NCBI RefSeq assembly: GCF_900103785.1
Contig: NZ_FNHE01000002.1
Location: forward strand, 186,001-250,000
Direction: 5' to 3'
Source: Geodermatophilus siccatus
Lineage (GTDB): Bacteria; Actinomycetota; Actinomycetes; Mycobacteriales; Geodermatophilaceae
DNA: 64,000 nucleotides
Program-made: the position numbers and the translations under genes
Part shown: in pieces, positions 58,416 to 62,599 of the stretch
Position numbering within the stretch: position 1 is the stretch's first letter
How the letters are laid out: each line of letters begins with the position of its first letter
The notes under the pieces: model-generated
What the model saw: the letters and a program-made list of their open reading frames with translations, nothing else
What the model was told of the DNA's origin: nothing
Database searches by the model: none

Positions 58416-59279
58416 TCAGGTGGTGGGTGCCTCTCCCCCGCTGCCCGCCGTCCCGCCGCTGTCGGGGGCCGACGGCTCGCCGAGGCCCGCCGGGGTGCCC
58501 GGCTGGGGCACGCTCGGGGAGTGCGCCGCGGTGTGCGGCTCCTCGCCGCCGACGGCCGCGGACTCCTCCTGCCGGTCGAGCAGCGGGCGCAGCGCGGCAC
58601 CGGTGATCCGCCGGAAGGCCCGCTTGGGCCGCCGCCGGTCCAGGACCGCGACCTCCAGCTGCTCGGCCGACAGCAGCGAGGGACCGCCGTTGCCGGCGCT
58701 GGTGGCCGGGCTGACCGCCGACAGCGCCTGGACGCCGACCCGCAGCGCCTCGGCCAGGCCCATGCCGGGCAGGAAGTGCTCGCGCAGGTTGGCGCTGACC
58801 GCCTCGGCCTGGCCGCCCATGACGACGAAGTCGGGCTCGTCGACGACCGAGCCGTCGAAGGTCAACCGGTACAGCTGGTCGGTCTCGGGGGTGTCGCCCA
58901 CCTCGGCGACGCACAGCTCCACCTCGAAGGGCTTCAGCTGCTGGGTGAAGACCTCGCCCAGGGTCTGCGCGTAGGCGTTCGCGATGACCCGGCCGGTGAC
59001 GTCGCGGCGGTTGTAGCTGTAGCCACGGACGTCGGCCAACCGCACCCCGGCCACGCGCAGGCTCTCGAACTCGCTGTACCGGCCGACGGCGGCGAAGCCG
59101 ATCCGGTCGTAGAGCTCGCCGACCTTGTGCAGCGTGGAGCTGGGGTTCTCGGCGATGAACAGCACACCGTCGGCATAGGTGACGACCGCGACGCTGCGAC
59201 CACGCGCGATGCCCTTGCGGGCGTACTCCGACTTGTCGCGCATCAGCTGCTCGGGCGATGCGTAGTACGGCATGGTCAT
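58416..59279 (-). CDS. prcA: 20S proteasome alpha subunit
   Basis: The 287-residue alpha subunit forms the outer rings and the gate. It starts [72 protein letters not shown] and keeps the alpha-type N-terminal helix. The C-terminal 60 residues are disordered and rich in Pro, Gly, Ser and Thr. The gap to prcB is 5 bases, so they are co-translated. Confidence 0.97.
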
Positions 59280-59284
59280 GGCGA

Positions 59285-60127
59285 TCAGCCCTGCCCCTCG
59301 GCGGCGGCCCGCTCGTCGGTGATGATCTTGGCGACGGCGGCGACCTCGTCGTCGGTCAGCCGGACGGCGCCCTCGGCGTCGACCCGGTAGACGATCGGGT
59401 ACAGCCGGCGCACCGGGTCGGGGCCGCCGGTGGCGGAGTCGTCGTCGGCGGCGTCGTAGAGCGCCTCGACCAGGCTGCGCGTGGCGGCGTCCCCGTCGAG
59501 GCCGGGCCGCCAGGTCTTCTTCAGCGAGTTGCGGGCGAACAGCGAGCCCGAGCCGACGGCGGCGTAACCGCGCTCCTCGTAGTTCCCACCGGTGACGTCG
59601 TAGCTGAAGATCCGCCCGGGCGTGGTGCCGGGCGCGGCGTCGAGGTCGAAGCCGGCGAACAGCGGGACGACGGCCAGGCCCTGCAGCGCGGCGCCGAGGT
59701 TGCCGCGGATCATCTGGGCCAGCCGGTTGGCCTTGCCGTCGAGGGAGAGCGTGAGGCCCTCGATCTTCTCGTAGTGCTCGAGCTCGACCTGGTAGAGCCG
59801 GACCATCTCGATGGCGATGCCGGCAGCACCGGCGATGCCGATGACCGACCAGGCGTCGGCCGGGTAGACCTTCTCGATGTCGCGGCTGGAGATCAGGTTG
59901 CCCATGGTGGCCCGCCGGTCGCCGCCCATGAGGACGCCGCCGTCGTAGGTGACCGAGACGATCGTGGTGCCGTGCGGCGTGACGTCACCGACGGGCAGCT
60001 GCGGCACCGGCCGGCGGCCCGGCAGCAGGTCGGGCGCGGCCGCCGCGAGGAAGTCGGTGAACGAGGAACCCACCCGGTCCAGGTACGCGGGCGGGAACCC
60101 GCTCCGACCAGCCGAATACTCGCTCAC
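59285..60127 (-). CDS. prcB: 20S proteasome beta subunit
   Basis: The 280-residue beta subunit has a propeptide of about 53 residues. It is cut before Thr54 ([26 protein letters not shown]), which becomes the N-terminal nucleophile. The remaining core, with [28 protein letters not shown] and [17 protein letters not shown], is standard. GTG 60127 is adopted. A decayed HNH gene separates prcB from pup. Confidence 0.97.
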
Positions 60128-60223
60128 CCATCCGCCTCTCTCGCCGCTGTGGAGCAGCAGCCTCGCTCGAACAGAGGCCTCCTCGACGACCCGCGCGGGG
60201 CCGGTCAGGACGCCGCCACGACC

Positions 60224-60655
60224 CTACCGGCGGCTCCGCGGTCGGGCTCCCGGTGGCCGGCCCGACGACGAGCGTCTCCTGGGGTCGCGCGAGCAGCTGC
60301 CGCTGGAGATGCGCGTCGACGTAGACGGCGGCCGCGTGCAGGAGCGTCGGGTCGTCGCGGACGAGGCCCAGGCCCGGTTGCAGCGCCGGCACAGCATCGG
60401 GCGCGTCGCACCGGTCTCGTGGTCGTGGTCCAGGTGCGGCGCCGGGTCGCCGCAGATCGCGCAGCGGCCGCCCCGGGCCGCCGTCAGGTCGGCGACCTGG
60501 CTCATGGTCAGCCGGTGTTCCCGCTGGACGTAGTACTCACCGTTCGCGGCGTTGTGGCACGGTCTGCAACGACTCGCGACGCCCGACGCAGCGCGGCTGC
60601 TGCGCATGTGGTCGTCATGGGCGACCGCCCGACGACAGGACGGACACCGGCGCAA
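60224..60655 (-). pseudogene. Frameshifted HNH/recombination endonuclease VII-like gene
   Basis: The first frame encodes CPSC and CRPCHNAANGEYYVQREH, then the HNH core CAICGDPAPHLDHDHETGATRPMLCRRCN. After this the correct continuation, GLGLVRDDPTLLHAAAVYVDAHL, is in another frame. Adding one base in the C run at about 60373-60375 restores the reading, so a single-base deletion has split the gene. The upstream start is unclear (TTG 60655 or the missing start before RDHSWVPAGL). Family members are phage-type resolvases or homing-like HNH nucleases; it interrupts the pup-prcB interval. Confidence 0.75.
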
Positions 60656-60782
60656 GCCAGCCGGGACCCACGAGTGGTCGCGGATCTCCTCGCCCCACGC
60701 AGTCGCTGACCGGCTTGACGACCCCGCACGACGGACGGCGTTTCTCAGTGATCACCGTCGCGTCGGACGACTACCGGAGTGA

Positions 60783-60992
60783 TCACTGGCCTCCCTTCTG
60801 CACGTACGACCGGACGAACTCCTCGCTGTTCTCCTCGAGGACCTCGTCGATCTCGTCGAGGATGGAGTCGAGGTCCTCGGAGACCTCCTTGTGCCGCTCG
60901 GCGACCTCGGTGTCGACCGAGGCCTCGACCTCCTCGGTCTCCTCCCGGCTGCGCGTCGAGCGCTGCTGACCGCCGCTGTCCCTCGTGGCCAT
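60783..60992 (-). CDS. pup: Prokaryotic ubiquitin-like protein Pup
   Basis: The 69-residue protein is the degradation tag. The hallmark C-terminal half EVAERHKEVSEDLDSILDEIDEVLEENSEEFVRSYVQKGGQ is present. It ends in GGQ, so Dop must deamidate the last Gln before PafA can use it. The N-terminal half is disordered, as usual. Dop lies immediately upstream. Confidence 0.98.
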   Translation of the reverse strand: MATRDSGGQQRSTRSREETEEVEASVDTEVAERHKEVSEDLDSILDEIDEVLEENSEEFVRSYVQKGGQ

Positions 60993-61093: not shown

Positions 61094-62599
61094 TCAGCCG
61101 CCGGTGATCGTGTCGACCAGTTCCTGCGCCGAGGACGTCGACTCGAACAGCGCGCCGACGTGGTCCCGCGTGCCGCGCAGCGGCTCCATCGTGGGGATCC
61201 GCACCAGGTTCTCCCGGCCCAGGTCGAAGACCACCGAGTCCCACGACGCCGCGGCCACCTGGGTCGGGTAGCGGCGCAGGCACTCCCCGCGGAAGAAGGC
61301 CCGGGTGTCCGACGGCGGGCGCACCATCGCCTGCAGCACCTCGTCGTCGGTGAGCAGTCGCTGCATCGAGCCGCGCGACACCAGCCGGTGGTACAGCCCC
61401 TTCTCCGGCCGGACGTCGGAGTACTGCAGGTCGACCAGGTGCAGCCGCGAGTCACCCCACGACAGGGCGTCGCGGGAGCGGTAGCCCTCCAGCAGCCGCA
61501 GCTTCGCCGGCCAGTCCAGGCGGTCGGCGCAGCGCATCGGGTCGACCGCGAGGTCCTCGAGCACCTCGGCCCACCGGCGCAGCACGTCGGCGGTCTGGCC
61601 GTCGTCCTCACCCCGCCGGTCGACGTGCCGCTGTGCCATCTCCAGGTACGCCTGCTGCACCTCCAGGGCCGTCATCCGGCGCCCGTCGCGCAGCCGCACC
61701 TGGTGGGTCAGCGACGGGTCGTGGCTGATCGCCTGCAGCGCCGCCACCGGCTCCTCGATCGAGAGGTCCTGGGTCAGGGTGCGCGCCTCGATCATGTCCA
61801 GCACCAGCGCCGTCGTCCCGACCTTGAGGTAGGTCGACAGCTCGGCGAGGTTGGCGTCGCCGATGATCACGTGCAGCCGGCGGTACTTGTCGGCGTCGGC
61901 GTGCGGCTCGTCGCGGGTATTGATGATCGGCCGCTTGAGCGTCGTCTCCAGACCCACCTCGACCTCGAAGAAGTCGGCGCGCTGGGAGAGCTGGAAGCCC
62001 TGCGTGCGGCTCTCGGTGCCGATGCCCACGCGCCCGGAGCCGGCCACCACCTGGCGGGTCACGAAGAACGGGATGAGCCCGCGGATGATCTCGAGGAACG
62101 GCGTCCGCCGGTCCATCAGGTAGTTCTCGTGGGCTCCGTAGGACGCGCCCTTGCCGTCGGTGTTGTTCTTGTAGAGCTGGATCGGCTGGGTGCCGGGGAC
62201 GCGCGCGGCGCGGCGCGCCGCCTCGGCCATCACCTGCTCCCCCGCCTTGTCCCACAGGACGACGTCGTGCGGGTTGGTGACCTCCGGCGTCGAGTACTCC
62301 GGGTGCGCGTGGTCGACGTAGAGGCGGGCTCCGTTGGTGAGGATGACGTTGGCCATCCCGGAGTCCTCCTCCAGGTCGTTGTGGTCCAGCGCCTGGGCCG
62401 GGGACAGGTCGAAGCCCCGGGCGTCGCGCAGCGGCGACTCCTCCTCGAAGTCCCAGCGCGGCCGGCGCGGCGTCGGCGCCTCGGCCACCGCCCAGGCGTT
62501 CACGACCTGGCTGGACAGCGTCGTCGGGTTCGCCGTCGGCTGCCCGGGCACCGAGATGCCGTACTCGACCTCGGTCCCCATGACCCGCCGCACGCTCAT
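61094..62599 (-). CDS. dop: Pup deamidase/depupylase Dop
   Basis: Dop converts the Pup C-terminal Gln to Glu and can also cut Pup from substrates. The 501-residue protein starts [20 protein letters not shown] (conserved TEVEYG), has the Dop loop (about residues 40-80) that PafA lacks, and carries the catalytic Asp in [14 protein letters not shown] (about residue 96). [19 protein letters not shown] matches the ATP-binding segment. TAGGGT (62611-62606, - strand) lies 6 bases before the ATG, so it is leaderless. Confidence 0.96.

What the first reader, a model, noticed from the sequence alone, without database searches (positions are those of the whole stretch)
60224..60655. Decayed HNH endonuclease gene inserted between pup and prcB
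The conserved HNH core and its natural C-terminus are in different frames, separated by one missing base at about 60373-60375. In M. tuberculosis pup and prcB are neighbours, so an extra nuclease gene here is a sign of insertion and then decay. A sequencing error is the main alternative.
Basis: partly seen in the sequence, partly recalled or inferred. Interest (0 to 1): 0.5.

Follow-up and report, generated by a model that had tools for sequence, protein, structure and literature searches.

The report
Dead swappable nuclease gene beside pup
The broken gene is one dead copy of a DNA-cutting enzyme gene that sits beside pup, the bacterial ubiquitin-like tag gene, in many actinobacteria; it is repeatedly swapped and lost there and goes together with silent rewriting of the end of pup, which suggests (but does not prove) a self-spreading homing gene aimed at pup.

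Summary
In detail: an Endonuclease VII (PF02945) core lies between pup and prcB with its C-terminus in another frame. The copy is deader than reported: about 83 nt are missing from the first zinc repeat and one zinc cysteine is replaced, so one sequencing error cannot explain it.

"Inserted" is wrong for this genome. The gene, full, broken or remnant, fills this slot in 98 of 102 pup loci examined in the family (Geodermatophilaceae), and in Streptomyces and Actinomadura relatives. Intact copies (~190 aa) carry two zinc ribbons plus an Endo VII nuclease; the nearest solved structure is Hpy99I.

Two diverged types alternate at the slot without regard to the flanking genes' tree. Genomes with 96.5-97.7% identical flanks carry nuclease genes only 53-70% identical. 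Nuclease type predicts silent codons in the last ~12 codons of pup (p 2e-16); the five strongest of 745 columns in dop, pup, prcB and prcA are all there.

Best reading: a free-standing homing-type endonuclease beside its presumed target, the pup 3' end, decayed in the window. Cleavage is untested; a cassette-borne operator overlapping pup is the main rival.

The parts
60783..60992 (-). pup (69 aa, ends GGQ)
   Evidence: PF05639 E 4.6e-29
60786..60821 (-). last 12 codons of pup: the part whose synonymous codons follow the nuclease type across the family; the window has the type I pattern (CAG AAG)
60702..60755 (-). remnant of the first zinc ribbon, in a frame other than the core, with the first zinc cysteine replaced by arginine
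   Evidence: frame translation and alignment to G003, G013, G008
60700..60702 (-). site of a deletion of about 83 nt relative to G003 (97 nt gap against G008; placement uncertain)
60373..60700 (-). second zinc ribbon and Endonuclease VII (DHHRN/HNH) core, open frame, catalytic D, H, H, R, N still present
   Evidence: PF02945
60374..60376 (-). place of the frame change (single-base gap against relatives)
60300..60374 (-). C-terminal helix of the nuclease, out of frame with the core
   Evidence: profile positions 171-195, 21.2 bits
60128..60299 (-). rest of the nuclease tail and spacer to prcB; sequence identity with relatives returns just before prcB
59285..60127 (-). prcB (proteasome beta)
   Evidence: PF00227 E 1e-29
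58416..59279 (-). prcA (proteasome alpha)
   Evidence: PF00227 E 6.1e-15
61094..62599 (-). dop (Pup_ligase family; called dop from its place beside pup)
   Evidence: PF03136 E 2.3e-193; name inferred from position

Best explanation
The window holds a pseudogene of an old resident nuclease cassette of the pup-proteasome locus. Shown by sequence: intact members are ~190-aa proteins with two zinc ribbons and an Endo VII (DHHRN) active site, with low dN/dS among closely related intact copies. They sit directly downstream of pup in several actinobacterial families. At this slot copies are replaced by diverged copies, break, and vanish, while the neighbouring genes stay orthologous. The last codons of pup go with the cassette: their synonymous codons follow the nuclease type. 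Inferred: the nuclease is a free-standing homing-type endonuclease. It would cut pup alleles lacking the matching rewritten tail, repair from the nuclease-bearing allele would copy in the cassette together with the tail, and the rewritten tail would protect the carrier. Once fixed, a copy is no longer needed for spread and decays, as in the window.
For: Slot: 80 of 80 named loci have pup upstream, 77 prcB downstream (these are the best 80 of 359 confirmed relatives). All 26 class-wide matches with E < 1e-40 outside the family lie beside pup, compared by hand. Optional: none at 4 of 102 family pup loci; pup-prcB gaps of 0-23 nt in the five f8 genomes read. Exchange: 13 type changes on the flank tree of 39 typed genomes, shuffled mean 11.6-11.7, 460-468 of 500 shuffles as low, at least 11 forced by starred branches. 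AU tests reject flank groupings in the nuclease trees: G009+G016+G025 p 1.2e-6, G016+G025 1.5e-3, G002+G006 2.1e-4, G000+G003 2.8e-4. dS nuclease vs flanks: G016-G025 1.19 vs 0.073; G006-G007 0.98 vs 0.090; G000-G003 0.885 vs 0.172. Identity collapses at the pup stop and returns before prcB. Recoding: codon -5 CAG in 28 of 28 type I, CAA in 57 of 66 type II, p 1.9e-16; codon -4 p 3.3e-13; five best of 745 variable columns all in pup codons 58-67, no signal in the first 50 prcB codons beyond one p 0.03. Partial Mantel r 0.39, p 5e-4 for the pup tail, r 0.04, p 0.28 for the preceding 108 nt. Class sample: GC3 drop 0.237 in 20 genomes with the nuclease vs 0.069 in 20 without, p 6e-4. Omega 0.08-0.11 for G001/G010/G018, G010/G020 and G004/G011. 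A homing enzyme with the Endo VII motif is known: F-CphI (passages).
Against: No cleavage data. In 741 pairs of 39 genomes no nuclease pair is more alike than its flanks (closest 92.7 vs 96.1%), so no fresh transfer was caught. Recoding differs between types and within type II (r 0.29, p 5e-4) but not within type I (r 0.06, p 0.36). 9 of 66 type II genomes keep CAG at codon -5, and broken type II copies (3 of 13) hardly differ from full ones (6 of 53) (that call counts G024 as broken, though its main copy is full). Some genomes without a detected nuclease have A/T-rich pup tails (G186, G176, G251) and some with it do not (G208, G160, G173). Genomes with remnants or losses in Streptomyces also keep some drop. 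Linkage to pup but not prcB may partly reflect distance: the nuclease starts 20-45 nt after pup in most family copies but ends 100-900 nt before prcB. Lineage-specific motifs follow the pup stop, as an operator would. Long persistence at one slot also fits a useful gene. The flank tree held all 25 other sampled genomes of the genus but a hand-picked 14 of the rest of the family; related genomes in the codon tests are not independent.
Confidence: 0.5

Rival explanations
1. A host-serving nuclease or DNA-binding regulator of the pup operon (DNA repair or phage defence), whose alleles turn over by ordinary homologous recombination. The pup tail is rewritten because the cassette's own operator or promoter overlaps it; tail and gene travel together by linkage.
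For: Lineage-specific motifs just after the pup stop: ATGTCCG in 12 of 15 Actinomadura/Actinoplanes loci, in both orientations (shuffle maximum 4); CCTTCGA in 12 of 18 Streptomyces-like loci (shuffle maximum 5). Low dN/dS of close intact pairs. Restriction-enzyme-like fold. Long retention in Streptomyces and Actinomadura relatives.
Against: Frequent breakage and loss (22 broken or remnant and 4 absent of 102). No methyltransferase among the immediate neighbours. It does not by itself explain why two diverged types alternate so freely.
Confidence: 0.3
2. Ancestral tandem copies of both types, with one or the other lost in each lineage.
For: Tandem second Endo VII domains exist at this slot in Actinomadura-like loci.
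Against: No locus in the 40-genome set shows both types; only G024 has a faint second piece, of the same type, 6.6 bits. It does not explain same-type pairs with near-identical flanks and very diverged genes (G016-G025).
Confidence: 0.1
3. A single insertion in this genome followed by decay.
For: The copy is decayed.
Against: Same slot filled in 98 of 102 family pup loci.
Confidence: 0.02
4. Assembly or sequencing error in an intact gene.
For: The frame change is a single base in a short homopolymer (sequence).
Against: A second large gap and a replaced zinc cysteine; independent broken copies in other assemblies. No reads were available.
Confidence: 0.03

Closest known systems
F-CphI and the DHHRN homing endonucleases with the Endo VII motif (Fang et al. 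2018, PMC6083498; passages read)
   Same: Endo VII catalytic motif with D, H, H, R, N invariant in the 20 aligned members; free-standing gene next to a conserved gene; optional presence
   Different: Bacterial chromosome, not cyanophage; two added zinc ribbons; no intron looked for or seen; cleavage and target untested
Hpy99I, beta-beta-alpha-Me type II restriction endonuclease (3fc3)
   Same: Best PDB relative by profile (E 6.6e-15, profile 66-192) and by Foldseek on the model of an intact member (E 6.6e-6; overall superposition poor, TM 0.29, rmsd 14.7)
   Different: No methyltransferase among the immediate neighbours; different N-terminal part
T4 endonuclease VII (gp49), Holliday junction resolvase
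   Same: Same catalytic domain (E 1.7e-10, profile 124-178)
   Different: Likeness confined to the catalytic core; resolvase activity untested
Actinophage Endo VII-like proteins (e.g. Arthrobacter phage MargaretKali, Mycobacterium phage Phabba)
   Same: 91-97% of the protein covered, zinc ribbons included
   Different: 30-33% identity; all 509 phage records matched are under 60% identical

Membership tests
Endonuclease VII (PF02945) | Profile match above the curated cut-off | tested here: met
   Window 45.3 bits vs 23.6; 20 of 20 members of A1 match, best E 7.9e-27
DHHRN / Endo VII-motif endonucleases | Conserved D, H, H, R, N between CxxC pairs | tested here: met
   Invariant in 20 of 20 rows; present in the window core; definition from passages
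Free-standing homing endonuclease | Optional gene between two conserved genes | tested here: met
   98 of 102 family pup loci occupied (76 full, 22 broken or remnant), 4 without
Free-standing homing endonuclease | History not congruent with the neighbouring genes | tested here: met
Free-standing homing endonuclease | Carrier allele altered at the target and co-inherited with the gene | tested here: inconclusive
   Type-linked pup tail; that it is the target was not tested
Free-standing homing endonuclease | Cuts alleles lacking the gene and is copied into them | not testable with these tools
   Needs an experiment
Type II restriction enzyme (Hpy99I-like) | Partner methyltransferase beside it | tested here: not met
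   Immediate neighbours are dop, pup, prcB, prcA; wider neighbourhood not scanned
Holliday junction resolvase | Cleavage of four-way junctions | not testable with these tools
   Needs an experiment

The most novel reading that the evidence does not exclude
Actinobacteria harbour an old, widespread lineage of homing endonucleases specialised on the 3' end of pup. Each nuclease type travels with its own silently rewritten pup tail, and in doing so also shifts the last residue of Pup between Gln and Glu, the residue that decides whether Dop must first deamidate Pup. A selfish gene would thus have shaped the coding end of the bacterial ubiquitin-like tag.
Probability: 0.4. Interest if true: 0.82.

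Novelty: new variant of a known kind. Interest (0 to 1): 0.62.

Why it matters
The pup-proteasome locus is studied as a stress and virulence locus, and the two texts I searched by passage, a 2008 gene-neighbourhood study and a 2021 review, contain no mention of a nuclease. If the nuclease targets pup, the silent codons at the end of pup and the Gln/Glu choice at Pup's C-terminus, which decides whether Dop is needed for activation (stated in the review), would be partly the mark of a selfish gene. The claim is directly testable with one enzyme and two short DNA targets. It also warns that 'extra gene between two M. tuberculosis neighbours' need not mean a recent insertion.

Tried and rejected
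Rejected: recent insertion; sequencing error; programmed frameshift (breaks lie at different profile positions: 171 window, 173-174 G031, 162-170 G121, 156 G133, 128 G020, 134-139 G079); plasmid-borne relative (no match in plasmids to window 60130-60800). The chromosome-wide search of the class found strong matches only at pup, so a general mobile family of this architecture elsewhere was not seen at E < 1e-40.

Led nowhere or weak: relaxed selection as a clean marker of decay (intact pairs such as G009-G025 also reach omega 0.33); recoding lost after decay (3 of 13 broken vs 6 of 53 full); very recent transfer (none among 741 pairs). Foldseek gave no global superposition. Literature: eight searches found no paper on a nuclease gene between pup and prcB in the held open-access library; most subscription papers are not in it. 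Papers: PMC2588565 (abstract and passages), PMC6083498 (passages), PMC8223512 (passages); all others seen in listings only.

Status counts: the script labelled G024 and G090 'broken'; G024's main copy is full and G090's label comes from a misplaced pup stop, so I count 76 full, 22 broken or remnant, 4 none (full list). Five of the 22 (G029, G092, G098, G109, G124) are 67-81% complete genomes, where errors are likelier. Of 104 family genomes with pup, G034 and G064 were not fetched. G061, G065 and G090 were left out of the codon test. G016, G021 and others kept as stated. The tree counted G021 (no gene) with the broken ones.

Full report
OBSERVATION. The reading frame 60655..60224 (-) encodes an Endonuclease VII core (PF02945, E 8.5e-12) between pup and prcB. 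The profile of intact relatives continues in another frame after a single-base gap near 60375. The copy carries two further lesions: an ~83-nt gap against G003 within the first zinc ribbon, and arginine in place of that ribbon's first zinc cysteine. The window's genome is one contig set of 36 contigs, 99.99% complete. The genus is Geodermatophilus by the contig sizes that same-genus handles share with named records (e.g. 865437 bases for G013 and NZ_FNIQ01000002.1); the window's own species was not identified.

NOT A RECENT INSERTION. 36 of 60 relatives searched have a match. Of the 29 relatives' loci retrieved, all have pup upstream and 28 prcB downstream. Family-wide, 99 of 112 genomes match the profile and 104 have pup. 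I read 102 of these 104 pup loci: 76 hold a full gene, 22 a broken gene or remnant, 4 none (with two labels corrected by hand as told under Tried and rejected). Beyond the family, the best 80 of 359 confirmed loci in named genomes include Streptomyces, Kitasatospora, Embleya, Actinomadura, Actinoallomurus and Actinoplanes; 80 have pup and 77 prcB next to the gene. In a class-wide sample of 197 genomes, 166 have Pup; all 26 matches with E < 1e-40 outside the family lie beside pup, by my comparison of the two tables. Weaker matches lie elsewhere too (for example G271, G252, G218), so the wider Endo VII family is not confined to pup.

THE INTACT PROTEIN. Twenty members align over ~190 aa: two CxxC...YCxxC/H repeats, then the nuclease. 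D, H, H, R and N of the Endo VII motif are invariant. The model of an intact member is confident locally (mean pLDDT 92.2, pTM 0.56). The nearest solved relatives are Hpy99I (E 6.6e-15) and T4 endonuclease VII (E 1.7e-10); Foldseek ranks them in the same order, but the global fit is poor (TM 0.29). Phage relatives of the same layout exist at 30-33% identity.

TWO TYPES THAT SWAP. Copies fall into two types by profile score. On a tree of dop, pup, prcB and prcA for 40 genomes (all the genus members sampled plus 14 picked by hand), the types need 13 changes, no fewer than shuffled labels (mean 11.6-11.7). G006 and G007 have 96.5% identical flanks but nuclease genes of different type, 52.9% identical; G016 and G025 have 97.7% identical flanks and same-type genes 66.5% identical. 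Synonymous divergence of the nuclease exceeds that of the flanks 16-fold in G016-G025, 11-fold in G006-G007 and 5-fold in window-G003. AU tests reject the flank groupings in the nuclease trees. By contrast G001, G010 and G018 keep one lineage of the gene, with omega 0.08-0.10. So intact copies are constrained, but lineages replace each other in place. Broken or missing copies need at least 13 changes on the same tree, and break points differ: decay is recurrent.

THE PUP TAIL GOES WITH THE NUCLEASE. Identity between unlike loci collapses at the pup stop, with a cluster of silent differences in the last codons of pup. In 28 type I and 66 type II genomes the glutamine codon at -5 is CAG in 28 of 28 and CAA in 57 of 66 (p 1.9e-16), and the lysine codon at -4 is AAG in 27 of 28 and AAA in 54 of 66 (p 3.3e-13). 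The family GC3 is near 1 in the body of pup and falls to 0.14-0.5 at several of the last codons in type II. Scanning 745 variable codon columns in 39 genomes, the five strongest associations are pup codons 58, 63, 65, 66 and 67 of 69; the prcB start shows none to speak of. Nuclease distance predicts the distance of the last 36 nt of pup when flank distance is allowed for (r 0.39, p 5e-4), but not that of the 108 nt before (r 0.04, p 0.28); the effect holds within type II and not within type I. Pup's last residue follows as well: Glu in 21 and Gln in 7 of type I, Glu in 21 and Gln in 45 of type II (p 2e-4). Outside the family, 20 genomes with the gene (of the 26) show a GC3 drop of 0.237 in the last 12 codons of pup, 20 without it (picked by me from the listed pup places) 0.069 (p 6e-4). 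These genomes share ancestry in part, so the p-values are upper bounds on the strength of evidence.

INTERPRETATION. A nuclease gene that is optional, sits beside a highly conserved coding end, is replaced out of step with its neighbours, decays repeatedly, and is co-inherited with a silently altered version of that coding end is what a free-standing homing endonuclease is expected to look like; an Endo VII-type homing enzyme is known (F-CphI). The link is inference: no cleavage was tested, no very recent transfer was found, and motifs after the pup stop, in both orientations in Actinomadura-like loci, could be an operator. I give the homing reading 0.5 and a host-serving cassette with an overlapping control site 0.3.

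VERDICT. The given feature is a real pseudogene, correctly spotted, with the wrong history. The system it belongs to is more interesting than the feature. I found no report of it in eight searches of the held library, which lacks most subscription papers.

Noticed in passing
L191, L199, L182, L201, L204, L207, L192: pup-prcB interval of G010, G018, G001, G020, G024, G026, G011: In the longer intervals (about 1.4-1.6 kb) a similar reverse-strand open frame of roughly 230-270 aa with hydrophobic stretches lies between the nuclease and prcB; function not looked up.
   Followed up: no
L104, L108, L112, L115, L119, L123, L125, L126, L130, L131, L134, L135 (Actinomadura-like), pup-prcB interval: A second Endo VII domain follows the full copy in tandem.
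   Followed up: no
first 60 nt after the pup stop, Actinomadura-like and Streptomyces-like loci (L085-L137): ATGTCCG in 12 of 15 and CCTTCGA in 12 of 18 loci, in both orientations; possible binding or cutting site.
   Followed up: partly
window 60786-60788 and the same codon in 94 family genomes: Pup's C-terminal residue is Gln or Glu within one family and correlates with the nuclease type.
   Followed up: partly
L155 (G061) and L157 (G065): A third, very divergent nuclease version occupies the same slot (54-63 bits).
   Followed up: no
L234 (G090): The Pup frame runs on past its C-terminal glycines without the usual end, within the homopolymer-rich rewritten tail; error or real loss not decided.
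   Followed up: no
L066 (SPQJ01000009.1): A record labelled Bacillus sp. AZ43 (marked unverified) carries a Blastococcus-like pup locus: probably a mislabelled organism.
   Followed up: no
G000 contig C23:40314-40448: A second, partial Endo VII match in the window's own genome, away from pup (E 1.1e-11).
   Followed up: no
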